Shown: piece by piece, positions 6,909 through 32,616 of the stretch
Layout: each line of letters starts with the position of its first letter
Position numbering within the stretch: position 1 is the first letter of the stretch
Source: Oscillospiraceae bacterium
GTDB lineage: Bacteria; Bacillota; Clostridia; Oscillospirales; Oscillospiraceae
DNA: 64,000 nt
Direction of reading: 5' to 3'
NCBI GenBank assembly: GCA_017434755.1
Contig: JAFRER010000011.1
Coordinates: 1 to 64,000 of the forward strand
The notes under the pieces: generated by a model
What the model saw: the letters and a program-made list of their open reading frames with translations, nothing else
What the model was told of the DNA's origin: nothing
The model's database searches: none
Made by a program: the position numbers and the translations under genes

Positions 6909-7211
6909 ATGATCACGATCGAGATAAAAAAAGAGCCGCTGCGGATCGTCAGCAGGGGCCACGCCACGGGGGCGGGGCTGGCGGGAGCGAATCTCGTCTG
7001 CTGCGCGGTGAGCACGCTGCTGTATACGCTGCTCTCGGCGGTGGAGGACAGCGGCGCGCTTTCGGACGTGAGCCTGGCGGACGGGTTCATGGACCTTGCC
7101 ATCGGGCCGGGAGAGAGAGCCGCCTGCATGGTGCATACGGTGGTCACCGGGCTCGAGAGCCTCGCGGCCCAGTATCCCGAAAGCATCAAGATACGGAAGG
7201 AGGGCGGCTGA
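6909..7211 (+). CDS. Prp-like cysteine protease, phage-encoded
   Basis: This 100-residue protein matches ribosomal-processing cysteine protease Prp, which in Firmicutes removes the N-terminal extension of ribosomal protein L27. The catalytic region reads SRGHATGAGLAGANLVCCAV, with His18 and a Cys pair at 31/32 followed by AVS. In canonical Prp, His and Cys are 12 residues apart; here the first Cys is 13 away, so there is a one-residue loop insertion, and the usual Asp before V-C is Asn28. The tail (GLESLAAQYPESIKI) also fits the family. AGGGAG lies 8 nt before the ATG; the frame is open upstream only through a repeat. Its place inside the head module, and the LQLFAE motifs in scaffold and capsid, point to procapsid processing instead of a ribosomal role. 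It overlaps the next gene by one base. Confidence 0.85.
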   Translation: MITIEIKKEPLRIVSRGHATGAGLAGANLVCCAVSTLLYTLLSAVEDSGALSDVSLADGFMDLAIGPGERAACMVHTVVTGLESLAAQYPESIKIRKEGG

Positions 7212-8374
7212 TGGCCACGGAGAAGGAGAAGGAGGAGCTCCTCGAACAGGCGGAGGAAGGGCCCGCAGGCGCGAGCGGAAGCGGACGCACTGCGGAGGTT
7301 TCCCCGGGTCTGTCGTATGAGGAATGGACGGACCGGATCAAAGGAGCCATGGAAAGTGACGGGGGCTATCAGGCAGCCATGGCGAAGCTTGCGGAGGTCG
7401 AGGGCTCCCGTCCCGAGTACGCGGGGACCTATGACGACGACATCCTCCGGGCCTACGACAAGATCCTGCGCCGGGAGGGCTTCCGCTACAGTCTGGACGA
7501 CGACGCGCTCTATCAGCAGTACGCGGACCGGTTCATGGCGGCGGGGAAGCTGGCCATGCGGGACACGATGGGACAGGCGTCCGCGCTGACAGGGGGATAC
7601 GGCTCGAGCTACGGGCAGGCGGCCGGGCAGCAGACCTACGACGCCTGGCTGCAGGGGCTGGGCGACGTGGCCCTCGAGATGTACGACCGGGCATACGGAC
7701 GCTACCGGGACGAGGGAAAGGCCCTGACGGAGGCCTATGAGCGCGCGAGGGACATGGGCGGCGAGGAATACGCCCGGTATCAGGATGCGCTGGGGCAGTG
7801 GAACAAGGACCGCAGCTACGCGGCCGATGCCGCAGGCGAGGCCCGGGACCGGGCCTACAGGACCGACAGCGAGGCGTGGGACCGCTACCGGCAGGAGAGG
7901 CAGTTCGAATACGATAAGCAGACGGACTATGCCGCCACGCTGGCCAAGTACGGCGACTTCTCCGGCTATGCGGAGCTGTTCGGCGAGGACCGGGCTGCGC
8001 AGATGCGGAAGGTGTGGATCGCGGGGAACTTCGACCTTGCGTACAACTCCGGCATGATCAGCGCGGACGAGTACCGCGCCATGACGGGGAAGTGGCCTCC
8101 CGGCTACAGCACGGGCGGCGGAGGAGGCGGCGGCACCAGGAAGAAGGACAGCGGCAACCGCTACGACGCGGTGCTCACCGAGGTGCGCATCATGGACGCC
8201 AGCGGCAGCAGCACCGGCACCATCCAGAACAAGCTGGACAGCGCCTACGGCGCGGGGGCCCTCACAAAGCCGCAGTACACCTGGCTGACCAGCAACTTCG
8301 GCAGCGGGAACACGAGCGGCAATACCGGCAGCAGCGGCGTGAAGAAACCCGGGCAGGGGATGCAGCTGGCGTAA
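7211..8374 (+). CDS. Putative phage internal virion or ejection protein
   Basis: The protein has 387 residues and no domain that can be named with certainty. It is rich in Tyr, Asp, Ala and Gly, with a helical centre (about residues 60-230) full of short ARYQDALGQWNKDRSYA-like blocks. Other features are a Gly run near 300 (GGGGGGG), a Lys-rich patch, and a low-complexity Ser/Gly/Asn tail. Proteins of this composition occur in the head-tail region of Firmicutes podoviruses and prophages. Its ATG overlaps the Prp stop (TGATG), so translation is likely coupled. Its position after portal and protease suggests an internal head protein ejected with the DNA, or a tail component. The function is inferred from context only. 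A strong hairpin follows, and this is the last + gene before the cargo. Confidence 0.6.
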   Translation: MATEKEKEELLEQAEEGPAGASGSGRTAEVSPGLSYEEWTDRIKGAMESDGGYQAAMAKLAEVEGSRPEYAGTYDDDILRAYDKILRREGFRYSLDDDALYQQYADRFMAAGKLAMRDTMGQASALTGGYGSSYGQAAGQQTYDAWLQGLGDVALEMYDRAYGRYRDEGKALTEAYERARDMGGEEYARYQDALGQWNKDRSYAADAAGEARDRAYRTDSEAWDRYRQERQFEYDKQTDYAATLAKYGDFSGYAELFGEDRAAQMRKVWIAGNFDLAYNSGMISADEYRAMTGKWPPGYSTGGGGGGGTRKKDSGNRYDAVLTEVRIMDASGSSTGTIQNKLDSAYGAGALTKPQYTWLTSNFGSGNTSGNTGSSGVKKPGQGMQLA

Positions 8375-8383
8375 GGCAATAAA

Positions 8384-8415
8384 AAAAGCAGGACAGCGGG
8401 TGCTGTCCTGCTTTT
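8384..8415. terminator. Bidirectional terminator
   Basis: AAAAGCAGGACAGC pairs with GCTGTCCTGCTTTT around a short loop. It lies between convergent genes and marks the border between the left phage segment and the cargo. Confidence 0.85.
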
Positions 8416-8645
8416 CATTTGTTTGGACTTGGGCCCGGGCGCGTTATGCTCGGGCGCGTAAATTTCACGCCGCAATTGTTGCAGACGTAGCCCGGAACAA
8501 GATTTTCCGGCGTAACAGGCTCCAGGCTCACGTCGGAGCTGAGGCAGTACGGGCATTTCACCGTGTAGGGCTTATACTCCCCGGAGATCCCGTCGGCGCC
8601 GGTGACTTTTTCCAGCTTTTCCTCGTCCAGTTTGTTCTCAGCCAT
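8415..8645 (-). CDS. Zinc-ribbon microprotein with leader-like N terminus
   Basis: This 76-residue protein has two parts. Residues 1-22 (LDEEKLEKVTGADG is the core) resemble the double-glycine type leader of bacteriocin-like peptides, although the second Gly of GG is replaced by Ala. Residues about 30-62 hold CPYC and CNNC, a four-Cys zinc ribbon. A Pro-rich tail follows. The start was chosen because AAAGGAG sits just before the ATG; the frame continues upstream without a ribosome site. A relative of similar layout lies at 33315-33536. No peptide transporter or maturation enzyme is near, so secretion is only a possibility. The alternative is a small metal-binding adaptor protein. Confidence 0.65.
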   Translation of the reverse strand: MAENKLDEEKLEKVTGADGISGEYKPYTVKCPYCLSSDVSLEPVTPENLVPGYVCNNCGVKFTRPSITRPGPSPNK

Positions 8646-8726
8646 GGTGTTTCTCCTTTTGATCGTTTCCTCTGTATCTGTTATTACGAAGCATAGCACA
8701 GGAGGGACAGCCCGGCAAACGGGGAT

Positions 8727-9188
8727 TCAGCGGTCCAGCCATTCCTTCAGGCGGCGGAACACTTCCTCCTTATCTTCCGCAGGGATCGCCCCGCTCCTGT
8801 TCAGCGCATAATGATGCCCGAACTCGCTGTCCGTATACGTGTTCCCGTTGAGCACGACGGGCTTGTCATACCGCGGCCTCACGTGTATATGCAGATGCGG
8901 GTCCGGCGCAGGGTCCTTATAGAAGCTGTTCATCAGACAGCTCCAGTTGCACAGAGCCGCCCCTAAAACAGCCTTCAGGCAGGCCTCCGTTTTCCGGATC
9001 AGCTCGCGCAGCTCGTCCCATTCCTCCTCCGTCAGCTCCGACAGGGAAGGGCAATGACGCTTCAGGACCACGATGCAGCGGCCGGGAAGATCCTGTTCAT
9101 CCGCCAGGAAAACCGACCAGGATCTGCTTTCGTACAGCTGAAACCGCCTGCCTTCTTCCGAAAGATCGCACCAATCACAATGTTCCAT
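8727..9188 (-). CDS. HIT family protein
   Basis: This 153-residue protein contains the histidine triad HLHIHVRP (H-x-H-x-H) near its C-terminal third, the active site of HIT nucleotide hydrolases and transferases. An N-terminal CDWC pair may bind zinc. HIT proteins act on nucleoside phosphoramidates, dinucleoside polyphosphates or similar; the substrate here cannot be named. The start at 9188 has AGGAG 6 nt upstream; a further upstream start lacks one. It is probably cotranscribed with the methyltransferase gene upstream (27 bp gap). Confidence 0.85.
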   Translation of the reverse strand: MEHCDWCDLSEEGRRFQLYESRSWSVFLADEQDLPGRCIVVLKRHCPSLSELTEEEWDELRELIRKTEACLKAVLGAALCNWSCLMNSFYKDPAPDPHLHIHVRPRYDKPVVLNGNTYTDSEFGHHYALNRSGAIPAEDKEEVFRRLKEWLDR

Positions 9189-9214
9189 CTTCTTCTCCTG
9201 AAAACCGCTCTGTG

Positions 9215-10000
9215 TCATCCGTTTTTCCGGAGGATATCCAGCGTGTGGTGGGAGGCCCCGATCAGGTCCTGCCGCTCACAGACGGCAAAATGATACTCCA
9301 GCCATTTTTCGAAGGTCTCGTCGTCCATCTCGTCGATGAATTCCCGTTTGTAATTGGTCGCGCCGTCGGTGGCGACGAGCTTGAGCCGCTCCAGCGGGAA
9401 TTGGGCGTCCAGCGCGGCGATATCCTCCGTGCGCACCAGTTCGAAGATCTCCTTCGGATCGCTGACGCAATGCCAGTCCGGTGTGAGCATGCAGCCTTCC
9501 AGGACCTCGTGCAGATGGTTCATCCCGAAGACGTACTGGATGACCGTCGGCTCGTTCATGCAGTAGGCGACCAGGATGATCCCGCCGGGTCTCGTCACGC
9601 GGACGGCCTCGGAAAGCGCCTTCAGCTTATCCTCTTCCGTGTAAAGGTGATACATCGGGCCGAGCAGCATCGTCAGGGAAAAGGCTGCGTCCGGCAGGAA
9701 GGACAGATCCAGGGCGTTGCCCTGCAGCGCCGTGATCGGCTCCGAGCCGTCCAGCTTGGCTTTCAGCAGCTCCAGATTGCGGGGGACCAGCTCCACGGCC
9801 GTGACCCGGAAGCCCTCCTTCGCCAGGGCGACGCTGTAGCGCCCGGTCCCGGCTCCGATCTCCAGAACGGCCGGGTCCTCCATCCCGGAAAGATACGCAT
9901 GGATATACTTCATGGTCGTGAGGTATTCCACCTGCCCGTGACGGGAGAGAAGGCGGCCCTCCTCGTTGTAGCTGTTATAGTAATCCTCCAGATAGCTCAT
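9215..10000 (-). CDS. Class I SAM-dependent methyltransferase
   Basis: This 261-residue protein has a Rossmann-type AdoMet fold. Motif I is VLEIGAGTGRYSVAL (near residue 45), followed by an acidic end of strand 2 (VTAVELVP). NALDLSF is motif II-like, and MLLGPMYHLY with the RPGGIILVAY block is typical of small-molecule methyltransferases. The substrate is unknown. The start gives homology from the first residue; longer frame upstream is not supported. It is followed by the HIT gene. The divergent DUF6442/HTH pair lies upstream. Confidence 0.85.
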   Translation of the reverse strand: MSYLEDYYNSYNEEGRLLSRHGQVEYLTTMKYIHAYLSGMEDPAVLEIGAGTGRYSVALAKEGFRVTAVELVPRNLELLKAKLDGSEPITALQGNALDLSFLPDAAFSLTMLLGPMYHLYTEEDKLKALSEAVRVTRPGGIILVAYCMNEPTVIQYVFGMNHLHEVLEGCMLTPDWHCVSDPKEIFELVRTEDIAALDAQFPLERLKLVATDGATNYKREFIDEMDDETFEKWLEYHFAVCERQDLIGASHHTLDILRKNG

Positions 10001-10129
10001 CGGTTTTCTCCTGTGACCAAGTATAGGGAAATGATACCACACAAGGCTCGGCCGAACAAGAAGAAAGCAGGCGCGGCGCAGCCCGGTCTGCCCTGCCGAA
10101 ATTTTGCAAAGAAAACTTGGAAAAACCGG

Positions 10130-10158
10130 TTGACAAGTAAACTTGGCAGTGCTATAGT
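10130..10158 (+). promoter_or_regulatory. Sigma-A promoter for the DUF6442/HTH pair
   Basis: TTGACA (10130-10135), a 17-bp spacer and TATAGT (10153-10158) form a near-consensus promoter. Confidence 0.85.
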
Positions 10159-10178
10159 GTTGACAACAAAACTTGGCA
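10130..10178 (+). promoter_or_regulatory. Two 19-bp direct repeats, likely operator
   Basis: TTGACAAGTAAACTTGGCA (10130-10148) and TTGACAACAAAACTTGGCA (10160-10178) are exactly 30 bp apart, about three helical turns. A third AAACTTGG occurs at 10113-10120. They overlap the -35 and the start region, which suits autorepression by the HTH protein encoded second in the operon. Confidence 0.65.
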
Positions 10179-10199
10179 TCAAGGAGGTTTGATGAAAAA

Positions 10200-10526
10200 A
10201 TGGATCGGGAAGAAATACTGGCAAAAGCGCAGAGCGAGGGAAAGCAGAGGGATCTGCCGGACCTTGAAGCCCAGAAAAACGGCGCCTGGACTGCGTATAT
10301 CCTCGGCGTGATACTGCTCATCCTTGTGGACACCGTGAACGGCTTTGTGCTGCACTACGTGAACCGCGGCGCGGACTTTGCGCTGTTTTCTATGGCGTTT
10401 GTGGTGTTTCTGACGAAGTATCTTCGCCTGCGGAAGAAGCATGAGCTGATCATGACGATCATCTGGGGCGTGCTGGCACTTTCCATGCTGGTCGTATGGA
10501 TCCTGCAGCTGACGGGGGTGCTTTGA
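10200..10526 (+). CDS. DUF6442 family membrane protein
   Basis: The product has 108 residues. A hydrophilic start (MDREEILAKAQSEGKQRD) is typical of DUF6442. Three hydrophobic segments follow at about residues 33-50, 58-76 and 84-104, so it is a small integral membrane protein. AAGGAGG at 10181-10187 serves the start; an ATG at 10192 is in another frame. The family commonly pairs with a small Xre-type regulator, and here the stop overlaps the start of such a gene (TGATG). The function is unknown. Confidence 0.75.
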   Translation: MDREEILAKAQSEGKQRDLPDLEAQKNGAWTAYILGVILLILVDTVNGFVLHYVNRGADFALFSMAFVVFLTKYLRLRKKHELIMTIIWGVLALSMLVVWILQLTGVL

Positions 10527-10735
10527 TGGAAGACGGACTTGTCCTGCACAACCGGCTTGCGTCTGCAAGAAAAGAGAGGGGACTGTCCCAGGCGGAGCTG
10601 GCGAAACTGGTCGGCGTTTCCCGCAACACGATCAGTTCCATCGAAACCGGGCAGTTCAACCCGACGGCCAAGCTGGCGCTGATCATCTGCATCGCGCTGG
10701 ATAAGGAGTTTGAAGAGCTGTTCTATTTCGAGTAA
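10526..10735 (+). CDS. Xre-type transcription regulator
   Basis: This 69-residue single-domain Cro/CI-type helix-turn-helix protein has the motif LSQAELAKLVGVSRNTISSI, followed by the typical ETGQFNPT and a C-terminal dimer helix. The length matches the YozG-like subfamily. The start overlaps the DUF6442 stop, so the two are one operon. It probably binds the CTTGGCA-containing repeats at 10130-10178 and represses its own operon; this is inferred. Confidence 0.9.
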   Translation: MEDGLVLHNRLASARKERGLSQAELAKLVGVSRNTISSIETGQFNPTAKLALIICIALDKEFEELFYFE

Positions 10736-10780
10736 GCCGCAGGGGAAATAAGAGCCCGGCCGCCGGCTGCGGACTGCATA

Positions 10781-10811
10781 AAAAAGGAGCACCCGGAAGG
10801 GTGCTCTTTTT
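10781..10811. terminator. Terminator, GAGCACCC family
   Basis: GAGCACCC and GGGTGCTC form the arms, flanked by A and T runs. It serves the convergent HTH and lipoprotein genes. Near-identical hairpins lie at 12301-12333 and 13911-13944. Confidence 0.8.
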
Positions 10812-10825
10812 GGGTTTCTATCTGG

Positions 10826-10839
10826 TTTACATAATATTA
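10826..10839. repeat. Single 14-bp TTTACATAATATTA unit
   Basis: One copy of the 14-bp unit seen in phase at 1801-1828, 2428-2455 and 4578-4647; here it stands alone between a terminator and the end of a lipoprotein gene. Confidence 0.4.
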
Positions 10840-10848
10840 AGGGGCAGC

Positions 10849-12216
10849 TTATTCGTACAGATAAAGCGTGCCGGAGGCGGAGACGAGCTCGATATCGCCC
10901 AGTACGACGGCGGCATAATTGGCATATCTGTTCAGGATCGACGTTCTGTTCCTTATAGTGAAATACAGCTTCGGTTCGAGATAGTAAGCTTTCAGAATAT
11001 CTTCCTTTTTAAACGAATTGTGCGAGCATTGATCGAGCGGATACAGCAGCTTATAGGAATGGTTTTCGAAATCGATGTCCATGGAATCCGAGTCCACCAG
11101 ATACTGCGTATACCGCACATCCACGGTGATATCCGAATCGTACCGGTGGTCCGGGTGCACCGTAAAGCCATCCCGGAGGTAGAAGCCGGAGCCGGCAAAC
11201 ATGGCGGCGGGCTCGCCGGAGGAATATCTCTGTACAGAGGTGTTGTTCTCCGGGATCTCCACGTACTCGAAATAATCGAGGAAGTTCTCCGCGGTGAGCT
11301 CCACTTCCAGCACCGGCGGGGCCGGCTTGAGATGCTCTATATAGGCCCGGGCCTCGCCGTACCGGCCGGATGCAAGCAGACCGATCAGCTCCTCCCAGGC
11401 GGCATATTCCGCCGGGACAGCAGGCAGCTCCGCAGGGGCTTCAGCCGCATTCTCCGGGCCGGCGGGCTCCCCGGTGCTCAGGTAGAGCGTTCCCGAGGCG
11501 GAGACGATCTCGATCTTATCCTCCGGGATAAGGGTGCTGTGCTCGCCTTTGATCCCGAGCCAGGTCTCGTCGACACCGACATAATAAAACGGCGCCGTGT
11601 TTTCCCTGTAGTTCACGTAGGATCCGCTGACCATCTTGTCGCGAAGGGATATATCCCGGTCCGCCGGCTTTCCGGTGGTCGTGTATGTGCCGTTTTCAGG
11701 ATCCGTTTCGATCTTTCTGCCGTTCTGATACCACCAGGACTCATATTTCACGCCCAGGTCCAGATGGCAGTCCCAGGCCTTCTCCGGCAGGATGGTAAAG
11801 CCTTCCTTCAGATAATAGCCTGTCCGGTAAGCGACCGTCGTGATGTTCCCGGCGGAGCCGCTCATCGTATAGAAGTTGTTTTTCGGGAGTTCCACATACT
11901 CGAAATAATCGAGGAAGTTCTCCGTGGTGATCTCCACCTCCTCGTAGGGCGGCAGCACGGGCTCGGGCTCCAGCGCATCCACACAGGCGATGGCGGCATC
12001 GTAATCCGCGGCATCCATCGCGTCCACCAGCTCCTGATACTTCCGGTATTCCTCCGGGATCGCCGGCGCTTCCTCCCCGGCGGCCGCAGGCGCCGCCGCG
12101 GGCACTTCCTCCGGCCCTCCTGAGGGCACCGTCTGCTCAACGGAGGCGATCTCTCCGCAGGCGCAGAGGGCAAGGCACAGGGACAGGATCAGCAGCAGAA
12201 TGACAGCTCTTTTCAT
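10849..12216 (-). CDS. Lipoprotein with two VSASGTLY domains
   Basis: This 455-residue lipoprotein has a signal peptide with lipobox LCAC (Cys20), so it would be anchored on the outer face of the membrane. After a Pro/Ala/Glu-rich linker come two copies of a domain of about 150-170 residues. Each opens with ENFLDYFEYVE(L/I)P and ends with IE(I/L)VSASGTLYL. The copies are separated by a helical linker. A single-domain paralogue is encoded at 13960-14604. No enzymatic motif is seen; a binding or sensing role at the surface is possible. The start is the MKRAVILL signal peptide. It is followed by a hairpin of the GAGCACCC family. Confidence 0.75.
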   Translation of the reverse strand: MKRAVILLLILSLCLALCACGEIASVEQTVPSGGPEEVPAAAPAAAGEEAPAIPEEYRKYQELVDAMDAADYDAAIACVDALEPEPVLPPYEEVEITTENFLDYFEYVELPKNNFYTMSGSAGNITTVAYRTGYYLKEGFTILPEKAWDCHLDLGVKYESWWYQNGRKIETDPENGTYTTTGKPADRDISLRDKMVSGSYVNYRENTAPFYYVGVDETWLGIKGEHSTLIPEDKIEIVSASGTLYLSTGEPAGPENAAEAPAELPAVPAEYAAWEELIGLLASGRYGEARAYIEHLKPAPPVLEVELTAENFLDYFEYVEIPENNTSVQRYSSGEPAAMFAGSGFYLRDGFTVHPDHRYDSDITVDVRYTQYLVDSDSMDIDFENHSYKLLYPLDQCSHNSFKKEDILKAYYLEPKLYFTIRNRTSILNRYANYAAVVLGDIELVSASGTLYLYE

Positions 12217-12300
12217 ATGGGTCTCCCTTTTCAAATATGGTTTCCATGGTTCTTTATACGGAGTATAGCACAGAAAGAACGGCAATAACAACAGCAGAGT

Positions 12301-12333
12301 AAAAGAAAGAACACCCGGAAGGGTGCTCTTTCT
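12301..12333. terminator. Terminator, GAGCACCC family
   Basis: A hairpin around CACCCGGAAGGGTG with A- and T-rich flanks. It lies after the AbiEii gene on the minus strand and is nearly identical to those at 10781 and 13911. Confidence 0.7.
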
Positions 12334-12361
12334 GTCTTCAAAACTCAACATGAAACGATTT

Positions 12362-13228
12362 CTATCGCGCGGTCAGTTTTTCCGTGATGGACAGGAAGAA
12401 CTCTCTGCTCCACAGATCCAGCGACGCCGGATCGCGGATGAAAGGAAGCACGTCCCTTTTTGCCTGCGCATAGTCTATGCTCTCGAAGCGCCGGTATAGG
12501 ATCTCCTTGATCTCGTCCAGGGTCATGTCTTCCCTTGCCTGCTCAAAGCCCGAATCCACCAGTCTTGCGTTCAGGTGCCTCAGATCCACCGGCGTACCGC
12601 CGGAAAGATAAAACACGTAATCATAAAGATCTCTGCCTTTGACCCTGTTTTTCCAGGCGCGGCAGATGACAGCATGGAGCTTTCCGGCAAACAGGGAAGG
12701 CATATCATACAGATTGATCTCATACGGGATCGGAAGCAGTCTGAACTGACGCTCAAAGCCCGCATAAGGCGGCGGTGTCGTATCGACTTCGAACTTGACC
12801 TTGATCAGCTCAGAGCCGACGACCGAGGCGGCCAGTTCCTCATCCGCATAGCACAGCAGGATATGTTCCCGAGTATTGCCTTTCAGAAAGGCGGACAGGA
12901 CATCGGAATCCTTTCCTTTTGCTTTCGCTTCTGCCCTGAAGCGGAATCCGTATGCGCCGAGTTCCTTTTCCAGCGCAGGCAGGAAAGGATCCAGACGGAA
13001 ATCCGGATCGGGAGCCATCAGTGAAAAGTCCAGATCCTCCGAGAAGCGGTCGAGCCCGTGGAAAATGCGCAGGGCTGTCCCTCCGTAGAAAGCTGCCGTC
13101 TGAAAGAATCCGGCACGGGACAGACCGCACAGGATGATCTCCTGCACAACTTCCTTGATGCTGTTTTTCTTGTCGCCCAGGGTCTCGGACCTGTGCCGGG
13201 CAAGCATCTGCTCAATGATGTTATTCAT
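12362..13228 (-). CDS. abiEii: AbiEii-type nucleotidyltransferase toxin
   Basis: This 288-residue protein belongs to the AbiEii/AbiGii toxin family, a type IV toxin with a DNA polymerase beta-like nucleotidyltransferase fold. The visible motifs are YGGTALR followed by RFSEDLDFS (the GG...DxD core) and the distal KLHAVICRAWKNRVKGRDLYDY region. Family members transfer nucleotides to tRNA or similar targets and arrest growth, which can abort phage infection. It overlaps the antitoxin gene by 8 bp and lies downstream of it, the standard order. It appears complete and intact. Confidence 0.9.
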   Translation of the reverse strand: MNNIIEQMLARHRSETLGDKKNSIKEVVQEIILCGLSRAGFFQTAAFYGGTALRIFHGLDRFSEDLDFSLMAPDPDFRLDPFLPALEKELGAYGFRFRAEAKAKGKDSDVLSAFLKGNTREHILLCYADEELAASVVGSELIKVKFEVDTTPPPYAGFERQFRLLPIPYEINLYDMPSLFAGKLHAVICRAWKNRVKGRDLYDYVFYLSGGTPVDLRHLNARLVDSGFEQAREDMTLDEIKEILYRRFESIDYAQAKRDVLPFIRDPASLDLWSREFFLSITEKLTAR

Positions 13229-13814
13229 GCCGTTTCATCTCCTTCAGCATGGCGATCAGCAGGCGGTGGTTCTTCGTCTTATACAGGCCGGCAAGCTCTG
13301 CCATTTCGTTAAGATCCGCGCTGCGGAAGGCCGCCTCATCGATGCGCAGATCGTCGAACAGAAGCTGCCGGAGCTCCGTTCTGTTCGAGCAGGGCGAGCA
13401 GGTATACAGCCGGTCGCAGACAGCCTTCTCCGCCGATGCGATCATATAACCGTATCCGTTCTCCACACGAAGCTCGGTCCCGTAGGGGAAAGCGGCAGCA
13501 GGAACATCCCGGAAGGTGAAGACGCCGTAGGGCGTCTGATACTGCTTCTTTTTCTTTTTGCCGCAGGTCGCGCATGTAAAGGCATATACGGCCTCGGGGA
13601 TCAGACCGTGCCATGCCAGCGCATATTCAAAAGACAGATAGGACGGACCGTAGATGATCCCGGCCAGACAGTATCCCGGAACGCTGCGGTCTGTTTCGTA
13701 GAGGCCCCTGATGACCGGTATCAGTTCTCCGTCCCGGACCATCCTGCCGATCTTCGCGGCCGGATTCACATAGGAGCTGTTCTGTTGGAGCAGCATTGCT
13801 GTTGTCTTTATCAT
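13221..13814 (-). CDS. abiEi: AbiEi-type antitoxin
   Basis: This 197-residue protein has an N-terminal winged-helix region (about residues 1-45, with NPAAKIGRMVRDGELIPV then GLYE) and a C-terminal domain that includes a CATCGKKKKK segment. The layout fits AbiEi-like antitoxins, which repress their own operon and neutralise AbiEii without stable binding. The start was chosen by homology and because a promoter (TTGATT, 17 bp, TATTAT) lies just upstream, flanked by an inverted repeat. A longer upstream frame is not supported. Confidence 0.85.
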   Translation of the reverse strand: MIKTTAMLLQQNSSYVNPAAKIGRMVRDGELIPVIRGLYETDRSVPGYCLAGIIYGPSYLSFEYALAWHGLIPEAVYAFTCATCGKKKKKQYQTPYGVFTFRDVPAAAFPYGTELRVENGYGYMIASAEKAVCDRLYTCSPCSNRTELRQLLFDDLRIDEAAFRSADLNEMAELAGLYKTKNHRLLIAMLKEMKRHE

Positions 13815-13862: not shown

Positions 13863-13910
13863 GCGTTTTTCAGGAAAAAGACAGGGACGGTCCTCTGCCT
13901 TGTCATAAGA

Positions 13911-13944: not shown

Positions 13945-13959
13945 GATATATGTCTTCGC

Positions 13960-14604: not shown

Positions 14605-14629
14605 GGTGTTCCTCCTGCTTTTCCGCTGC

Positions 14630-21307: not shown

Positions 21308-21308
21308 T

Positions 21309-26146: not shown

Positions 26147-26181
26147 CTTTATTTCCTACTTTCTGCCTAATAGTCTCAGCT

Positions 26182-27555
26182 TCAGCTTGTATTCTTGCAT
26201 CCTCCCAGAATTGACCTTTCAAAAGAAGAACCATCTTCGTAAATTACTCTTAGTTTGTGCTCATAGCCTTCCGGGGTATTGATGAATCTCCACCTGATCA
26301 CAAAATCCGTATCATTGCTTTTGACCACATCGTAATCATACAATGCGTTTCTTATGTATCTGCTGCGTTCCGTCAGATTGCTGAACATGGTGCTGTCAAC
26401 CGAATATCTTTTATCCTTCCCGAGAAGGATCTCAGCGTTCTTCATATCGGCCGGAGTACGGAACACGATCATCTTCAGAAACTTCAAATCTACTTCATCA
26501 GGATACAAGAATTCAGCGTTCCGTTTTCTGGTGATCTCCGAAGTATAACCTTCGACCGGACCCCTTGATAAAGCCGTTTCCCAGTCGAATTCCAAAGCTT
26601 TCTCAAGATTCGCAGTGATAAGAGTATCTAATGCCCTCGCATTTCCGTCCGTTACAGCAATGCCGTTATGATACAGAAGCTTTTCACTGAACAGCAGAGC
26701 GACCGGTATAGGAACATTCCCTTCTTCCGGGGACTTATCCTCTTGAAAGATCCCTTCATTACGGTAAAAAGTTGGGGTCTTCTCTTTATAGTAAAACCGA
26801 ACACTGTCTCTGACAAAACGCGCTGTTCTTTCTACGATACTGGCTTCAGCCCCGTCTTTGAAACCTGCCAGTTTTGAATTATTTCTGCTGTATAAGCAGC
26901 CCGTTTTCATGATCTTCAGGAAATTCTGAAAATCTGTATGATGATGGAGATATTCAAAACCATTTGCTTTTAGTTTATTTATCAGATTATAGGTGTTTAT
27001 TGAAACGTTTTTCAGCATTACGTTTCTTGCGCGTGAAAACTCATCGTCAACACTATATGCGGAAATGAAATAATCATTTTCCATTGAGTTGAGCTGTTGG
27101 ATCGGAATTGCATCCTCTGATAAGGACTGATAGAACGAAAGGATCTTATTCTTTTTTTCTTCGATCGCTTTCTGTGCAGCAAGTTCACGTTCTATCTCAG
27201 CGATCCTCATTCTCTCACGCCAAGCTGCTTGCTCTTTTTCTTTTCTTTCCTGTTCTGCTTTTCTCTGTGCTGCTATTCTTTCTTTTTCACGCTCTTTCCG
27301 AATGCTTTCTTCTTCTTTTTCTCTAAACTTTTTCTGTTCTTCTTTGTATAGTGCTACCTTGATTTCTTCTTCAATTTCAGCTTGGACATCCGGGTCCACT
27401 GCTTTCAGAAACTTTACAAAAGTATCAGGAGAAGGATATTGGAATCGTGCAGATCTTGAAGGAAACTGAACTGTTATTATTCTATCATCCTGGTCTATTA
27501 CTGTGCCGGTACCGCATGTAATATGTTTTACTCGTTTATTCAACAGATTCATCAT
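26182..27555 (-). CDS. DarT-like ADP-ribosyltransferase with SH3-like N domain
   Basis: This 457-residue protein has three parts. Residues 1-55 form a small beta domain (KRVKHITCGTGTVIDQDDR, then ITVQFPSRSARF). Residues about 65-140 are a highly charged coiled coil. Residues about 190-440 resemble the DarT/DUF4433 family, which ADP-ribosylates thymidine in single-stranded DNA: FEYLHHHTDFQNFLKIMKTG then CLYSRN, VRFYYKEKTPTFYRNEG, then VALLFSEKLL and AVTDGNA. The start at 27555 follows AAGGG; a GTG 6 nt upstream lacks support. No DarG macrodomain antitoxin is present. It leads the group DarT-like, hsdM, EVE-like. The ART assignment rests on motif order; the target is unknown. Confidence 0.7.
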   Translation of the reverse strand: MMNLLNKRVKHITCGTGTVIDQDDRIITVQFPSRSARFQYPSPDTFVKFLKAVDPDVQAEIEEEIKVALYKEEQKKFREKEEESIRKEREKERIAAQRKAEQERKEKEQAAWRERMRIAEIERELAAQKAIEEKKNKILSFYQSLSEDAIPIQQLNSMENDYFISAYSVDDEFSRARNVMLKNVSINTYNLINKLKANGFEYLHHHTDFQNFLKIMKTGCLYSRNNSKLAGFKDGAEASIVERTARFVRDSVRFYYKEKTPTFYRNEGIFQEDKSPEEGNVPIPVALLFSEKLLYHNGIAVTDGNARALDTLITANLEKALEFDWETALSRGPVEGYTSEITRKRNAEFLYPDEVDLKFLKMIVFRTPADMKNAEILLGKDKRYSVDSTMFSNLTERSRYIRNALYDYDVVKSNDTDFVIRWRFINTPEGYEHKLRVIYEDGSSFERSILGGCKNTS

Positions 27556-27715
27556 TTTCACCCTTATCAGTAAGAAATAAGCAGTCCAAATGAAAAATAA
27601 TGAAATATTATATCATAGAACAAATATGTTTAAAACAAATTCATTGGATCAGCCAACTTCTTTTCCACCGTGGACTTCGGTTTGCGGTGTTTTTTGGCTT
27701 CTTTTGTACGTTGAT

Positions 27716-27758
27716 GGGGGAGAATGATTTCAAACGTTTCCTTTATAATGGGTTTGAA
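27716..27758 (+). repeat. 43-bp direct repeat, copy 1
   Basis: GGGGGAGAATGATTTC, then AAACGTTTCCTTTATAATGG and GTTTGAA. It matches 29916-29958 with three differences and lies exactly 2,200 bp from it. The stretch 27556-27854 holds no gene otherwise. Confidence 0.8.
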
Positions 27759-27854
27759 CTGTTGCGAATACTGCAGCAGTTGTGCTGCGCGCAAGGCTGC
27801 CTGTCCGGAAGATCTCCCGGAGTATGTCTCTCTTGTTTTTCAGTTCACCAGTTA

Positions 27855-28913
27855 TTATTTCTCTTCTCCGCTCCAGACATAGGCTGTGTAGCGGCCGCCG
27901 CCGATTTTGCTTATCTTGCCCTTCTCAAGCAGGTCGGCAAGCGTGCGTTCGACCGTTATCGGGCTGATATCCGGGAATCTTTCCAGAATGTCCGCTTTGG
28001 TGATCTTCCCGACATGTGTGCGTGCCATTTCTCTTATCCTCTCCGGCTTTGAAAGACCGTTCACCGTCATCAGCTGCACACGGCCGCTGAATTCTCTGTA
28101 TGCCGCCACGATGATCCCCAGCATGTAGCGGACGAAAGGCGCATAGTCATTGCTTTCCTTGTGCCAGTTGGTGGAGCTCTCCTGCAGGACATCGTAATAC
28201 GTGTCCTTCGTATCGGCTGTCAGCTTTTCAAGGCTTATGTATTTGCCTACGATGTAGCCTGCTCTGTACAGGAGAAGCAGAGTCAGCAGGCGGCTCATGC
28301 GGCCGTTTCCGTCGTTGAAGGGATGGATGCAGAGGAAGTCCAGGACAAAGACGGGGATCAGCAGCAGCGGATCCATCTCCGTGTCGGAGAGGGCAAGCTC
28401 GAAAGCCTGACAGAGCCGGTCGACCGTGTCCGGCGTCTCCCATGCGGGCACCGGCTGAAAGCGCACCCTTGCACTTCCGTCCGGAAGAGTCTCGGTAATG
28501 CAGTTATCCGCGTTTTTGAAGCTGCCGCCTATGGAGCTGCCGCTGAACTTGAACAGCTCCCTGTGAAGCTGCAGGATCATCGGAGGACGGGGAGGGATAT
28601 ATTCATAGTTCTCGTGGATCGTGTTGAGGACATCTCTGTATCCCGCGATCTCTTTCTCGCTTCTTGTTTTGGGCGCGGTCTTGTCCAGCACGATCATCCT
28701 GAGCCTGTCGCTCGTCGTGACGATGCCTTCGATGCGGTTGGACGCTTCCGTGCTCTGGATCCGGACGACATCAAGGAATTTAGCAAGCATATTGCTTTTC
28801 GCTTCAATGAACAGCGCCTGTTCTCCCCGGTATTCATGGATCGCCGTCAAAAGCGCTACCACGTCCGGAGTAAGAAGGGAGTTGTATTCTTTTTTGAAAT
28901 CAAACGCTCTCAT
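27855..28913 (-). CDS. Fic family protein with N-terminal inhibitory motif
   Basis: This 352-residue protein has the catalytic Fic motif HPFNDGNGRMSRLL (residues about 196-209), which transfers AMP or a related group to protein hydroxyls. An N-terminal inhibitory helix reads TEASNRIEGI (S/T-x-x-x-E-G), as in class II Fic proteins, so the enzyme is self-inhibited. The flap region lies around CITETLPDGSARVRFQPVP. The C-terminal 60 residues (ITKADILERFPDISPITVER) look like a winged helix-turn-helix and could bind the palindromes around its own promoter. A strong consensus promoter lies upstream. It is intact. Confidence 0.9.
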   Translation of the reverse strand: MRAFDFKKEYNSLLTPDVVALLTAIHEYRGEQALFIEAKSNMLAKFLDVVRIQSTEASNRIEGIVTTSDRLRMIVLDKTAPKTRSEKEIAGYRDVLNTIHENYEYIPPRPPMILQLHRELFKFSGSSIGGSFKNADNCITETLPDGSARVRFQPVPAWETPDTVDRLCQAFELALSDTEMDPLLLIPVFVLDFLCIHPFNDGNGRMSRLLTLLLLYRAGYIVGKYISLEKLTADTKDTYYDVLQESSTNWHKESNDYAPFVRYMLGIIVAAYREFSGRVQLMTVNGLSKPERIREMARTHVGKITKADILERFPDISPITVERTLADLLEKGKISKIGGGRYTAYVWSGEEK

Positions 28914-28935
28914 GGTTCTGCCTCATCTCCGGTTT

Positions 28936-28967
28936 AATTGCATCATTTTTACTATTTTGATGCAATT
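28936..28967. promoter_or_regulatory. Palindromic operator downstream of the Fic -10
   Basis: AATTGCATCA (28936-28945) and TGATGCAATT (28958-28967) are a perfect 10-bp inverted repeat covering the transcription start region of the Fic gene. The half-site TGATGCA is shared with the palindrome at 29000-29035. Confidence 0.75.
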
Positions 28968-28969
28968 GA

Positions 28970-28998
28970 ATTATAATCCCTTCTTTACTCCGTGTCAA
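28970..28998 (-). promoter_or_regulatory. Perfect sigma-A promoter for the Fic gene
   Basis: On the minus strand, TTGACA (28993-28998), exactly 17 bp, TATAAT (28970-28975). Confidence 0.9.
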
Positions 28999-28999
28999 T

Positions 29000-29035
29000 T
29001 CAACTGCATCATTTTCCGATAAATGATGCAGTTGA
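29000..29035. promoter_or_regulatory. 15-bp palindrome upstream of the Fic -35
   Basis: TCAACTGCATCATTT (29000-29014) and AAATGATGCAGTTGA (29021-29035) are perfect arms with a 6-bp centre, next to the -35. With the operator at 28936-28967 it brackets the promoter, which suggests tight repression. Confidence 0.8.
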
Positions 29036-29055
29036 TTACGGGGGTGAGGCAATTG

Positions 29056-29092
29056 AAAAGGACGGCCCTTTTTGAAGGAGCCGTCCTGTTTT
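29056..29092 (-). terminator. Terminator after the ferredoxin-like gene
   Basis: GGACGGC and GCCGTCC form the arms with AAAA before and TTTT after. Confidence 0.75.
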
Positions 29093-29111
29093 ATTTCCAT
29101 TGTACGCCCGG

Positions 29112-29783
29112 TCAGCCGAGAATCTCGCCGTTGCGGGAGATCGTGACCACCTGCCACGGGATGAACCGGCCGCTCTCGCGGATGGCTTTCTCCGCGGCGC
29201 GCTGCAGTCCGCCGCAGCAGGGCACCTCCATGCGCAGGAGGATGACGCTCCGGATGTCGTTGGACCGGAGGATCGCCGCGAGCTTTTCACTGTAGTCCAC
29301 GGCGTCCAGCTTGGGGCAGCCGATGACGGTGACTCTCCCTTTCATGAAGTCCTCGTGGATGCCTGCGTAGGCATAGGCCGTGCAGTCGGCGGCGATGAGC
29401 AGATCAGTCCCGTCAAAGAACGGCGCCCGTTCGGGAACGAGCTTGATCTGGCAGGGCCACTGGGCAAGGCGGGAGACCTGCGTCCCGCCGCCGGGCAGCT
29501 CCGGATCACCGGAGCAGGGCTCCGTTTGCTCAGCCGCCGCTTTCACGGCTTTGGCAGCCATCACCGCGGCCTCATCGTATGCGGGTGCCTCGCGCTCCTC
29601 AAAACGGATCGCTCCTGCGGGACATTGGGGCAGGCAGTCGCCGAGACCGTCACAGAAGTTCTCCCGGACGAGTCTCGCCTTCCCGTCCACGATGTCTATG
29701 GCGCCCTCGTGGCAGGCGGCGGCGCACAGGCCGCAGCCGGTGCATTTTTCCTCATCGATGTGTATGATCCTTCGTATCATCAT
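29112..29783 (-). CDS. 4Fe-4S ferredoxin-like protein
   Basis: This 223-residue protein has two [4Fe-4S] sites in residues 1-60: CTGCGLCAAACHEGAI is canonical CxxCxxCxxxC, and CDGLGDCLPQCPAGAI is a variant with a longer first spacing. The C-terminal part (about residues 105-223) contains LLIAADCTAYAYAG, VIGCPKLD and EVPCCGGLQ, so more Cys ligands or a substrate site are possible. Proteins of this build are widespread electron-transfer or sensor proteins in anaerobes. AAGGAG precedes the start. It is monocistronic, ending at a hairpin, and lies between the two 43-bp repeats together with the Fic gene. Confidence 0.8.
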   Translation of the reverse strand: MMIRRIIHIDEEKCTGCGLCAAACHEGAIDIVDGKARLVRENFCDGLGDCLPQCPAGAIRFEEREAPAYDEAAVMAAKAVKAAAEQTEPCSGDPELPGGGTQVSRLAQWPCQIKLVPERAPFFDGTDLLIAADCTAYAYAGIHEDFMKGRVTVIGCPKLDAVDYSEKLAAILRSNDIRSVILLRMEVPCCGGLQRAAEKAIRESGRFIPWQVVTISRNGEILG

Positions 29784-30004: not shown

Positions 30005-31111
30005 ATGCAGAAAATGATTTCGGGCGTGATCGCCGATGACGCCGGTCGGCACTTGAGGTGGGATCTCCAGCTCTTCGCGGAAGGCGCAACCGGCGGGGAA
30101 GGAACAGGAGAGGGAACACCTGCATCCGCGGATCAGGGGCAGACGGGGGAAAGATCCCTCGACAGGCTCGGGATGACATCGGATGAAATTGACTCGATCG
30201 AGGATTTAGGTATACCGAAGGAACGCCTGGAACGGTACAAGGCCGTTCGGGGGAGGAAAGATCCTTCGACTGCGCTTCGCTCCGCTCAGGATGACACGGA
30301 AGATCCTTCGACTGCGCTGCGCTCCGCTCAGGATGACAGAGGGGGAGAAGATCCGGACGCGAAGTGGGACGGGATCCTGAAGGACCCGGAATACAACCGG
30401 CGGATACAGGACATCGTTCAGAAGCGGGTCTCGGGGATGAAGGCCTCGCTGGAAGCCCTGGCTCCCGTTCTGGAGACCCTCGGACAGAAATATGGCATGG
30501 ACGTTTCGGACATCCGGAAGATGGATCTGGAGGAGCTCGCCAAGCACGTGGCGGAGGAGTTTCCACCTCATCAGTCAGCTTCGCTGACAGCTTCCCATGG
30601 CAGTTCGGTCACGACACAGGGGACCACCTCATCCGTCAGCCTTTCAGCTGACACCTTCCCCTCAAGGGGAAGGCTTGAAGGCCAGGATCAAGGGGAAGCC
30701 GTTAAGGAGAGCGGGGAGGAGCAGGCGAGGCGCCGGTATTTCGACGATCTCGTCCGGCAGGGGGAACTGCTGAAGGAGAAGATCCCGAACTTCGACCTGC
30801 AGCGGGAGCTGGAGGATCCGCGCTTTGCAAGGATGACCGCGCCGGGAGGGGGGTGGACCGTGGAGCAGGCCTTCAACGCCGTCCACCACGACGCCCTTGT
30901 CCGGATAGCGGTGGAACAGGCCGCGCGGGAGGCCGCAAGGGCGCTGTCCAACAGCGTGCAGGCGGGAAAGAGCATGCCCGTTGAGAACGGTTCCGTCCAA
31001 CGGTCCGCCATCGGAACGGAGACGAAGCTCTACAGCGCCATGAGCCCAGAGGAGAGGGCTGCGTATAAAAAGCAGCTGCAGAGCGGGAGGATCCGGTTTA
31101 GTAATAAATAA
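30005..31111 (+). CDS. Phage scaffold-like protein with Prp-type cleavage site
   Basis: This 368-residue protein lies just before the major capsid gene and is rich in charged helices, as expected of a scaffold: WDGILKDPEYNRRIQDIVQK and VLETLGQKYGMDVSDIRK, with a C-terminal block ending SGRIRFSNK. Near the start, residues 19-26 read WDLQLFAE, very like the L27 N-terminal sequence cut by Prp (cut expected between F24 and A25). GGAGG lies upstream of the ATG. Four dispersed repeats are inserted in frame: repeat A at 30149-30177, 30257-30295 and 30300-30338, and repeat B at 30562-30680. They make low-complexity insertions such as STALRSAQDD twice. The fold is probably maintained around them. Confidence 0.7.
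   Translation: MQKMISGVIADDAGRHLRWDLQLFAEGATGGEGTGEGTPASADQGQTGERSLDRLGMTSDEIDSIEDLGIPKERLERYKAVRGRKDPSTALRSAQDDTEDPSTALRSAQDDRGGEDPDAKWDGILKDPEYNRRIQDIVQKRVSGMKASLEALAPVLETLGQKYGMDVSDIRKMDLEELAKHVAEEFPPHQSASLTASHGSSVTTQGTTSSVSLSADTFPSRGRLEGQDQGEAVKESGEEQARRRYFDDLVRQGELLKEKIPNFDLQRELEDPRFARMTAPGGGWTVEQAFNAVHHDALVRIAVEQAAREAARALSNSVQAGKSMPVENGSVQRSAIGTETKLYSAMSPEERAAYKKQLQSGRIRFSNK
30149..30338. repeat. Three repeat A copies inside the scaffold gene
   Basis: Copies at 30149-30177 (AAGATCCCTCGACAGGCTCG), 30257-30295 and 30300-30338. The last two differ by a few bases and both encode DPSTALRSAQDD. All keep the frame open. Confidence 0.85.
30562..30680. repeat. Repeat B copies inside the scaffold gene
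   Basis: CACCTCATCAGTCAGCTTCG and CACCTCATCCGTCAGCCTTT are two copies, the second ending in the CTTCCCCTCAAGGGGAAG palindrome also found in the portal gene. Confidence 0.8.
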
Positions 31112-31284
31112 GATCCCTCGACTTTGCTCGGGATGACAGTTAAAGATCCCTCGACTCCGCTTCGGACAGTTCGCTTCCAGCGGCTCGTTCGGCGCTGTGC
31201 TTGAACTTGCCGGGAAGCTGTTGCGGCCGTTCGGTTGACCCCAAATCAGAGATTTGGACCGAACAGGCTCCACTCAAGATGACA
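31109..31284. repeat. Dispersed repeat A, composite copy
   Basis: Two short motifs (AAGATCCCTCGACT...) precede the long body with the CCCAAATC/GATTTGG palindrome. It fills the gap between scaffold and capsid genes. Confidence 0.85.
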
Positions 31285-31305
31285 ATTATGAAAAAGGAGA
31301 AATAC

Positions 31306-32616
31306 ATGACACATACATGGAATCTTCAGCTTTTTGCTGAAGCGGGAACGCTCGTAAACGCGACCGCGAACTACGTGAACGCCTATACCGGCGACGTGAC
31401 GGCGTTCGACTCGAAAAACACCCTCGCGCCCCAGATCAAGGACTTCTACGACACGGAGCTCCTGGAAAACGCGCGGACGGACACCTATTACGCCCAGCTG
31501 GCCAAGCGGGTGAACCTGCCCGCAGGGCACGGCGGAAGCGTGGAGTTTCGCAAGTGGAACACCTTCGAAAGGGCCGGGCAGCTGCAGGAGGGCGTGATCC
31601 CCACGGGACAGAAGTTCGGCCAGACCAAGCTCACCGCCGCCGTGAACCAGTTCGGCACCTACACCGCCGTGTCCGACCGCCTCGAGTACAAGGCCTATGA
31701 CGACATCATAGGCGGGGCCACCGAGGAGATGGGCGCCTCCCTCGCGGAGACACAGGAGGCCCTTATAAGGGACGCTCTGTTTGCCGGCACGAACGTGCTC
31801 TACGCGAACAAGATCACCAACGCGGACGGCTCCGTCGGCGCGCCTCCCACATCCATGGGCGGGCTCGTGGACAACGCCTCCTACAACTGCAGGATGACCG
31901 CGGAGCTCGTGAACAAGGCTGCCACGAAGCTCAAGAAGGACAAGGTGCCCAAGATCAACGGCAGGTACTACGCCGTGATCCACCCCTCCGTGGCGGAGGA
32001 CCTGCGCAACAGCGAGGGCTGGCTGGAGGCCCACAAGTACGCCCAGCCCGGCGAGATCTTCAACGGGGAGATCGGCGAGCTGCACGGCATCCGCTTCATC
32101 GAGGACACCTTCGCCCCCGTCTTCCACGGCGAGGATCTGGCGAGCGACAGCAGGACGCTCACCGTCAACTATGCCAGCGGCTACAGCGGCGCCATCACCA
32201 GCCTTGCCTTCGACGGCGGCACCGTGGCGGAGGACGAACTGATCGGCAGGGTGATCTGCATCAACGGCAAGACCGCCGTGATCACCGACAACACGGCCAG
32301 TATCCTGACCTTCGCCTCCACCGACTTCGGCAGCATCGCGGACAACACGGTCATCTACCCCGGAGAGGGCGGCGGAGAAGGCATCGCGGTCTACGCCACC
32401 TACTTCTTCGGGAAAGACGGCTTCGCCATCATCGACCCCGCCCAGGGCGGAGCGGAGATGATCGTCCACGACAAGAGCGAGATCGGCGGCCCGCTGAACC
32501 AGTTCAGCACGATAGGGTACAAATTTGAATCGAATGGTGCGACGATTTTGTATCAGGAGAGAGTGCTGCGGGTAATGAGCACTTCCTCTTATAGCTCGAC
32601 GGACGAAGGAAACTAA
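31306..32616 (+). CDS. N4-gp56 family major capsid protein
   Basis: This 436-residue protein matches the N4-gp56 family (HK97-like fold), with NTLAPQIKDFYDTELLENAR near residue 35, GGSVEFRKWNTF, AAVNQFGTYTAVSDRLE, and KVPKINGRYYAVIHPSVAED. The N terminus, residues 5-12, reads WNLQLFAE, a Prp-type cleavage motif (expected cut between F10 and A11), matching that of the scaffold. A beta-rich insertion at about residues 280-350 may be a surface domain. The start at 31306 has AAGGAG upstream; an upstream in-frame ATG (MKKEK) overlaps that site. The hairpin at 32647 follows. Confidence 0.9.
   Translation: MTHTWNLQLFAEAGTLVNATANYVNAYTGDVTAFDSKNTLAPQIKDFYDTELLENARTDTYYAQLAKRVNLPAGHGGSVEFRKWNTFERAGQLQEGVIPTGQKFGQTKLTAAVNQFGTYTAVSDRLEYKAYDDIIGGATEEMGASLAETQEALIRDALFAGTNVLYANKITNADGSVGAPPTSMGGLVDNASYNCRMTAELVNKAATKLKKDKVPKINGRYYAVIHPSVAEDLRNSEGWLEAHKYAQPGEIFNGEIGELHGIRFIEDTFAPVFHGEDLASDSRTLTVNYASGYSGAITSLAFDGGTVAEDELIGRVICINGKTAVITDNTASILTFASTDFGSIADNTVIYPGEGGGEGIAVYATYFFGKDGFAIIDPAQGGAEMIVHDKSEIGGPLNQFSTIGYKFESNGATILYQERVLRVMSTSSYSSTDEGN

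What the first reader, a model, noticed from the sequence alone, without database searches (positions are those of the whole stretch)
6909..31341. Phage-encoded Prp-like protease with matching L27-type cleavage motifs in scaffold and capsid
The sequence shows a Prp-type protease (His18, Cys31/32) in the head module. Near the N termini of the scaffold (WDLQLFAE) and capsid (WNLQLFAE) lies a motif like the LNLQFFA site that Prp cuts in L27. Prp of the host is known to trim structural proteins in some staphylococcal phages. Here the protease is carried by the phage itself and has a one-residue loop insertion between His and Cys. A self-contained head-maturation protease with possible cross-talk to host L27 processing follows by inference.
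Basis: partly seen in the sequence, partly recalled or inferred. Interest (0 to 1): 0.82.

Follow-up and report, generated by a model that had tools for sequence, protein, structure and literature searches.

The report
Phage brings its own head-trimming protease
This prophage appears to carry its own copy of Prp, the small protease that many bacteria use to trim a ribosomal protein, to trim its scaffold and capsid proteins, and it sits in a bacterium in which no other Prp was found and whose ribosomal protein needs no trimming.

Summary
Window 6909-7211 encodes a Prp-family cysteine protease (PF04327, 46 bits; model matches S. aureus Prp, TM 0.85). Scaffold (WDLQLF|AE) and capsid (WNLQLF|AE) N-termini carry L27-type Prp sites, the only two matches to a [DN][LF]Q[LF]FA DNA pattern in the 2.3-Mb assembly. 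'Cross-talk with host L27' fails: host L27 is short (MAHKKG...) and the prophage Prp is the only Prp found. In 150 sampled family genomes, 64 of 64 long-L27 genomes have Prp and 63 of 66 short-L27 genomes have none; the three exceptions lie on prophage contigs. In 94 of 107 distinct related capsid loci a Prp accompanies the site, usually 0.9-3 kb upstream. In 25 short-L27 hosts, 24 phages with a site or near-site have Prp (two inferred across contigs); the other lacks both. Site-bearing phages without Prp, where hosts were typed, sit in Prp-positive hosts. Phage Prps form one side of a supported branch. Best reading: a phage-encoded head-processing protease, between 80alpha (host Prp) and Cp-1 (own clan-CR protease). 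Cleavage is inferred. This copy has an unusual active-site loop (H-x12-C, Asn for Asp), and 21 kb of bacterial-type genes split its head module.

The parts
6909..7211 (+). Phage-encoded Prp-family cysteine protease (100 aa; His18, Cys31; loop H-x12-C, Asn28)
   Evidence: PF04327 46.1 bits, phrog_4478, AF2 pLDDT 91.6, Foldseek to SaPrp 7jvs/7kld TM 0.85
30005..31111 (+). Probable scaffold protein, N-terminal Prp-type site WDLQLF|AEG (motif at 30065-30079); start codon uncertain (30005 has GGAGG upstream)
   Evidence: phrog_13908 (unknown function) 97.1 bits; called scaffold from its place just before the capsid gene, as in related phages
31306..32616 (+). Major capsid protein, N4-gp56 family, N-terminal site WNLQLF|AEAG (motif at 31324-31338)
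   Evidence: TIGR04387 175.8 bits, cut-off 60; phrog_1357 major head protein
2909..4366 (+). Terminase large subunit
   Evidence: PF04466, PF03237, phrog_2
4657..6591 (+). P22-like portal protein
   Evidence: PF16510 87.8 bits, phrog_156
7211..8374 (+). 387-aa protein directly after Prp (start overlaps the Prp stop); same slot as 277-326-aa proteins after Prp in L281, L282, L284, L285
   Evidence: no family below E 0.01; gene order
8415..29783 (-). ~21-kb block of mostly minus-strand bacterial-type genes, several defence-like (AbiEii, HNH, HsdM, DarT, Fic, ADP-ribosylglycohydrolase), splitting the head module
   Evidence: the slot is empty in L037 and holds a giant gene in L280-L282, L284, L285
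33436..35379 (+). Internal virion protein by PHROG name
   Evidence: phrog_511 193 bits

Best explanation
The prophage encodes its own Prp, in the same gene run as terminase and portal. During head assembly it would cut the scaffold and the N4-gp56-type capsid protein after the Phe of an N-terminal [LI]-Q-x-F|A tag, leaving both with an N-terminal Ala: 10 residues lost from the capsid and about 24 from the scaffold. This is the chemistry and specificity known for host Prp on long L27 and on phage 80alpha scaffold and capsid. Here the phage cannot rely on the host, which has short L27 and no other Prp in its assembly. Shown here: protease family and fold, sites, gene order, co-occurrence across related phages, loop/site co-variation and host genotype. 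Inferred: enzyme activity, the cleavage itself, and its role in assembly.
For: (1) Family and fold. (2) The only two [DN][LF]Q[LF]FA pattern matches in the assembly are scaffold and capsid. (3) Of 160 capsid loci, 119 have at least 3.5 kb upstream and give 107 distinct capsid N-termini: 94 have site and Prp in the locus (all 94 on the same strand, 92 within 0.9-3 kb upstream), 12 have a site (one of them a near-site) and no Prp in the locus, 1 has neither. (4) Of 183 distinct capsid N-termini, 168 match [LIMFVW]Qx[FY][AGSC]; within those P1 is Phe in 167 and P1' is Ala in 167. The pattern preselects, but Phe and Ala dominate well beyond what it requires; Gln at P3 and F|A fit known Prp specificity (PMC9405229, passages). 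(5) In 25 short-L27 hosts, 24 phages with a site or near-site have their own Prp (two inferred across contigs), and the 25th (L256) has neither site nor any Prp found in its genome. (6) Canonical active-site loop goes with canonical site in 139 of 143 pairs, non-canonical loop in 3 of 8 (Fisher p 1e-5, relatedness not controlled). (7) Phage Prps are one side of a 100/96 branch against 38 host Prps. (8) Precedent: phage Cp-1 encodes a clan-CR protease that removes the first 48 aa of its head protein (PMC12445089, passage).
Against: No cleavage data. The window copy has Asn28 where SaPrp has Asp31, and D31A abolishes SaPrp activity (PMC9405229, passages); it also has one extra loop residue, in a stretch modelled at lower confidence (block pLDDT 67). 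The window is one of the three pairs in which an altered loop goes with an unaltered site, against the general co-variation. The prophage head module is split by ~21 kb and may be defective. Most phages in Prp-positive hosts also carry their own Prp (15 of 19, or of 20 with L277), so loss of host Prp is not the sole reason for carriage. In 80alpha neither scaffold nor capsid cleavage is essential (PMC5744158, passages). Tests 5 and 6 do not correct for relatedness. In many loci the gene before the capsid shows no site by my pattern (scaffold site seen in 112 of 175 candidates; 62 of 107), for instance L033.
Confidence: 0.82

Rival explanations
1. The LQLFA tag is kept mainly as an assembly or folding signal of scaffold and capsid, and the Prp acts as a chaperone or optional trimmer; cleavage is not the selected function.
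For: In 80alpha an intact scaffold N-terminus is required, but uncleavable scaffold and capsid are viable (PMC5744158, passages). [quoted passage not shown] The tag is kept in phages without their own Prp in Prp-positive hosts.
Against: His and Cys are invariant in 50 aligned sequences. The P1-P1' letters are those of the scissile bond. The active-site loop varies with the site. A capsid without a tag lies in a genome where no Prp was found (L256).
Confidence: 0.2
2. In this particular prophage the protease is impaired and the element is a defective remnant: Asn for the essential Asp, a longer loop, and a head module split by a ~21-kb block.
For: Asn28 with H-x12-C is found once among 202 distinct Prps; ~21-kb block of bacterial-type genes; repeat elements in frame inside portal and scaffold.
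Against: The same Asn/loop variant is kept in seven metagenome homologues at 64-94% identity, with His, Cys, Gly and the following helix intact. The scaffold and capsid reading frames are open and keep their sites. The block could be an assembly join.
Confidence: 0.25
3. The prophage Prp serves the host ribosome, replacing a lost host Prp (lysogenic conversion).
For: It is the only Prp found in the assembly.
Against: The host L27 has no extension to cut. In the family sample, 63 of 66 short-L27 genomes show no Prp at all.
Confidence: 0.02
4. Chance resemblance of LQLFA in two proteins next to an unrelated DUF464-like gene.
For: The motif is short; 1 of 100 shuffles of the window also had two matches.
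Against: 0.09 matches expected; 94 of 107 related loci repeat the arrangement.
Confidence: 0.01

Closest known systems
Host Prp (YsxB, MEROPS C108) acting on phage 80alpha scaffold and capsid in Staphylococcus aureus
   Same: Same protease family and fold, and same type of N-terminal site (LQxF|A) on both scaffold and capsid (PMC5744158, PMC9405229, passages).
   Different: In 80alpha the protease is the host's and also cuts L27; here the phage encodes it, and the host shows no other Prp and no cleavable L27.
Streptococcus phage Cp-1 protease (clan CR; gene orf13, the gene assignment recalled, not from a call)
   Same: Phage-encoded. A 104-residue protein of the Cp-1 relative SOCP matches the window model (TM 0.83); by length it is SOCP ORF14, identical to Cp-1 orf13. 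Gly, His and Cys align. Cp-1's protease removes the first 48 aa of the head protein (PMC12445089, passage).
   Different: orf13 is 21% identical, lies downstream of the capsid gene, and the Cp-1 head protein shows no LQxFA site in its first 110 aa.
PHROG 4478 'peptidase' / BFVD entries named 'YsxB-like protein' or 'Cysteine protease'
   Same: Phage Prp homologues already catalogued by family or annotation.
   Different: The listings seen here give no substrate, motif or host link.

Membership tests
Prp cysteine protease family (PF04327 / MEROPS C108) | Pfam profile above curated cut-off | tested here: met
   46.1 bits, cut-off 27
Prp cysteine protease family (PF04327 / MEROPS C108) | Prp fold | tested here: met
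   pLDDT 91.6; 7jvs_B E 2.2e-07, TM 0.85; 1s12_A TM 0.85
Prp cysteine protease family (PF04327 / MEROPS C108) | Catalytic His and Cys | tested here: met
   His18, Cys31 invariant in 50 aligned sequences
Prp cysteine protease family (PF04327 / MEROPS C108) | Loop Asp (SaPrp Asp31) and H-x11-C spacing | tested here: not met
   Asn28 and H-x12-C; 194 of 202 distinct Prps have G-H-x6-G-x-D-x2-C. This is a variant inside the family by the other tests
Ribosomal-processing Prp (NCBIfam equivalog) | Score over equivalog cut-off, gene between rplU and rpmA, long L27 as substrate | tested here: not met
   Best 42.6 against 136 bits; gene in prophage head module; host L27 short
80alpha-type Prp-processed head proteins | L27-type site at the N-terminus of both scaffold and capsid | tested here: met
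80alpha-type Prp-processed head proteins | Protease supplied by the host | tested here: not met
   The only Prp found in the 97.9%-complete assembly is the phage's
Phage-encoded clan-CR head protease (Cp-1 type) | Phage-encoded Prp-fold protease that cuts the major head protein | tested here: inconclusive
   Encoding and fold met; cleavage not testable here
Functional head-maturation protease | Observed N-terminal trimming of scaffold and capsid | not testable with these tools
   Needs proteomics or in-vitro assay

The most novel reading that the evidence does not exclude
Prp and the L27 N-terminal extension together are a domesticated phage head-maturation module: a protease plus its cleavage tag moved from phage head genes onto a ribosomal protein early in the Firmicutes lineage. 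Lineages such as this host later shed both, while their phages kept the original. The phage and host Prps fall on two sides of one branch; the tree is unrooted and excludes neither direction.
Probability: 0.17. Interest if true: 0.87.

Novelty: new variant of a known kind. Interest (0 to 1): 0.6.

Why it matters
Prp was found because a staphylococcal phage borrows it from its host. Here a large group of phages, found mostly in records titled as gut or rumen Clostridia genomes, carries the enzyme together with the tag, including in hosts that show neither the enzyme nor the tagged ribosomal protein. That gives a natural background in which Prp has no L27 to cut, so its role in capsid processing, its specificity and its direction of transfer can be studied apart. 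It also offers an explanation, for this family, of genomes that have Prp without long L27: all three seen in the 150-genome sample are on prophage contigs.

Tried and rejected
Rejected: host L27 cross-talk (short L27, no host Prp found). Rejected: 'phages without Prp use QFFA, phages with Prp use QLFA'. Several phages that first seemed Prp-less turned out to carry Prp 12.5-18 kb upstream, and QFFA also occurs with own Prp. Weak: P2 residue shared between capsid and scaffold (90 of 109 against 65 by shuffling), not corrected for relatedness, so not used as evidence.

Led nowhere: viral-contig search with the window Prp alone (no relative); phage isolate records (unannotated short records, one labelled a Listeria phage); Pfam on the giant gene of L281 (nothing). 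Literature: searches listed no paper that I could recognise as reporting a phage-encoded Prp with L27-type sites. One paper (PMC10846135, passages) brings up Prp when discussing a predicted protease, ORF22, of a Shewanella phage, without sites. The library lacks the two Wall et al. papers, so priority cannot be judged firmly.

Dropped rows: L135 (capsid alignment began inside the protein), loci with more than one Prp, and repeats. In one search, 41 of 160 loci with under 3.5 kb upstream, then 12 repeats. Searches used 50 of 80 genome loci. One search used 53 phage-side Prps, 8 of 30 family host Prps and the 30 best-scoring of 100 genomes with a match (119 searched).

Confidence in the best explanation went from 0.83 to 0.82 because the scaffold site is missing by pattern in a good part of the loci.
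Full report
WHAT IS THERE. The window is contig C26, bases 1-64000, of a 2.34-Mb, 27-contig genome assembly (97.9% complete). It holds a prophage head module in the order probable terminase small subunit (weak PHROG match), terminase large subunit, P22-like portal, Prp (6909-7211), a 387-aa protein (7211-8374), a ~21-kb block of mostly minus-strand bacterial-type genes, probable scaffold (30005-31111), N4-gp56-family capsid (31306-32616), and further virion genes. The protease is a PF04327 member (46.1 bits, cut-off 27). The AlphaFold model (pLDDT 91.6) is closest to S. aureus Prp with bound substrate or inhibitor (7jvs, 7kld; TM 0.85) and also matches TM1457. Gly17, His18, Gly26 and Cys31 are invariant across 50 phage and host sequences. 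The loop is H-x12-C with Asn28; 194 of 202 distinct Prps have G-H-x6-G-x-D-x2-C, and this is the only one with the x12/Asn combination, which seven metagenome homologues share.

THE SITES. [quoted passage not shown] The window has 2 matches to [LF]Q[LF]FA against 0.09 expected, 1 of 100 shuffles reaching 2. The whole assembly has 2 matches to [DN][LF]Q[LF]FA, both here.

THE HOST. The host L27 begins MAHKKGMGSTKNG, with GGAGGTG upstream of its ATG and rplU ending about 40 bases before. No other PF04327 match exists in the assembly. In 150 genomes drawn from the family, a long-L27 pattern hits 64 and a short-L27 pattern hits 66, with no overlap; 20 match neither. All 64 long-L27 genomes have Prp. 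Of the 66 short-L27 genomes 63 have none and 3 have one (G000, G109, G090), each on a contig with a capsid gene of this phage type. Five of the 20 unclassified genomes have a Prp. All 30 best-scoring Prp loci in the family lie just upstream of a long L27. So in this sample Prp and the L27 extension occur or are missing together, and the Prps of short-L27 genomes are prophage-borne.

RELATED PHAGES. Capsid searches returned 80 of 233 viral-contig loci and 80 of 124 genome loci, and a Prp search 80 of 285 viral-contig loci. Of the 160 capsid loci, 119 have at least 3.5 kb upstream, giving 107 distinct capsid N-termini (46 viral, 61 genome): 94 with site and Prp (all same strand, median 1.7 kb upstream, range 1.0-6.4 kb), 12 with site or near-site but no Prp in the locus, 1 with neither. 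L037 shows the plain order terminase, portal, Prp, scaffold (NLQLFAG), capsid (NLQLFAD) without any insert. In L280-L282, L284 and L285 a gene of at least 2,500 to 5,156 codons (L284 and L285 cut by the stretch or contig end) lies between Prp and scaffold, which explains why Prp had seemed absent within 10 kb.

PHAGE AND HOST TOGETHER. By pattern 15 are long and 25 short. Reading stretches added five long ones, G193, G194, G196, G198 and G199; five stay undetermined, all with phage Prp. Short hosts: 21 phages with site and own Prp on the same contig; L245 and L258 with site and a Prp on another contig that looks like the continuation of the same phage (inferred from gene content); L259 with a near-site (LQLLA) and Prp on the same contig; L256 with no site and no Prp found in the genome. 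Long hosts: 15 with own Prp; 4 without (L262, L264, L270 with LQHFA, L278 with IQLHA); L277 unresolved. Phages with a site but no own Prp thus occur, among typed hosts, only where the host has Prp (Fisher p 0.014-0.042 by counting choice; relatedness not corrected). L109, from a viral contig, has a site, no Prp in the locus and an unknown host. Fifteen of 19-20 phages in Prp-positive hosts still carry their own, so own Prp is the rule and borrowing the exception.

SPECIFICITY. Of 183 distinct capsid N-termini 168 match the site pattern; in these P4 is Leu 159 / Ile 9, P2 is variable (Leu 96, Phe 29, His 18, Tyr 12, Met 7, others 6), P1 is Phe 167, P1' is Ala 167. The regular expression itself required Gln at P3 and limited the other positions. 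The gene before the capsid shows a site in 112 of 175 candidates, so in a good part of the phages only the capsid site is evident. Where the active-site loop is canonical, 139 of 143 Prp-capsid pairs have a canonical site; where it is not, 3 of 8 do. L040, L041, L042, L044 and L172 change loop and site together; three of these (L040, L041, L044) match PF04327 only below its cut-off, so they may be decayed rather than adapted. The window is one of the three exceptions that keep the site with an altered loop.

ORIGIN. In a 95-sequence tree phage and family-host Prps separate at 99. In a 91-sequence tree with 30 further host Prps from across the phylum, the 53 phage-side Prps are one side of a branch at 100/96. 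The bootstrap had not fully settled, columns are few, and the tree is unrooted.

PLACE AMONG KNOWN SYSTEMS. Phage 80alpha uses host Prp on scaffold and capsid, and cleavage is dispensable there (PMC5744158, passages). Cp-1 encodes its own clan-CR protease that removes 48 aa of its head protein (PMC12445089, passage). A structural search of viral models links the window protein to a 104-residue protein of the Cp-1 relative SOCP, by length its ORF14, identical to Cp-1 orf13; that orf13 is the protease is recalled. The Cp-1 head protein has no LQxFA site in its first 110 aa. The window system combines the 80alpha substrate type with the Cp-1 mode of supply. Phage Prp homologues are already catalogued (PHROG 4478; BFVD names). 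I recognised no paper on their L27-type substrates in the listings, and key papers are not held.

VERDICT. Real, recurrent and well explained as a phage-encoded head-processing protease. Cleavage is inferred. The host-L27 cross-talk idea is wrong for this host. The activity of this particular variant copy and the intactness of this prophage are open.

Noticed in passing
window 8415-29783: A ~21-kb block with several defence-like genes (AbiEii, HNH, HsdM, DarT, Fic, ADP-ribosylglycohydrolase) sits inside the phage head module between the 387-aa gene after Prp and the scaffold; either cargo, a later insertion, or an assembly join.
   Followed up: partly
window 4674-4709, 30142-30177, 30258-30338, 32606-32641; 6403-6466 and 30548-30687: Interspersed repeats (AAGATCCCTCGAC..CTCGGGATGACA and CCTCATCAGTCAGCTTCCCCTCAAGGGGAAG) lie in and between phage head genes, several in frame inside portal and scaffold. 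Of 5 matches to a 28-base version of the first (up to 3 mismatches) in the assembly, 3 are here and 2 on contig C22.
   Followed up: partly
L280 5671-15030, L281 5857-16044, L282 3082-18552, L284 11056-19000, L285 10263-17836: A giant gene (at least 2,500 to 5,156 codons) fills the slot between Prp and scaffold in several related phages; no Pfam domain in the one tested.
   Followed up: partly
150 family genomes: The host family sample is split about evenly between long L27 with Prp and short L27 without chromosomal Prp, suggesting joint loss or gain of a step that is essential in S. aureus.
   Followed up: partly
L040, L041, L042, L044, L172: Phages with altered capsid N-terminal sites (LDLFDG, LALFDG, LRMFD) have Prp-like genes with altered active-site loops (shorter, longer or not aligned at the His); some score below the Pfam cut-off.
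   Followed up: partly
window 27716-27758 and 29916-29958: A 43-bp direct repeat (93%), the second copy just before the scaffold gene; possible end of a mobile segment.
   Followed up: no
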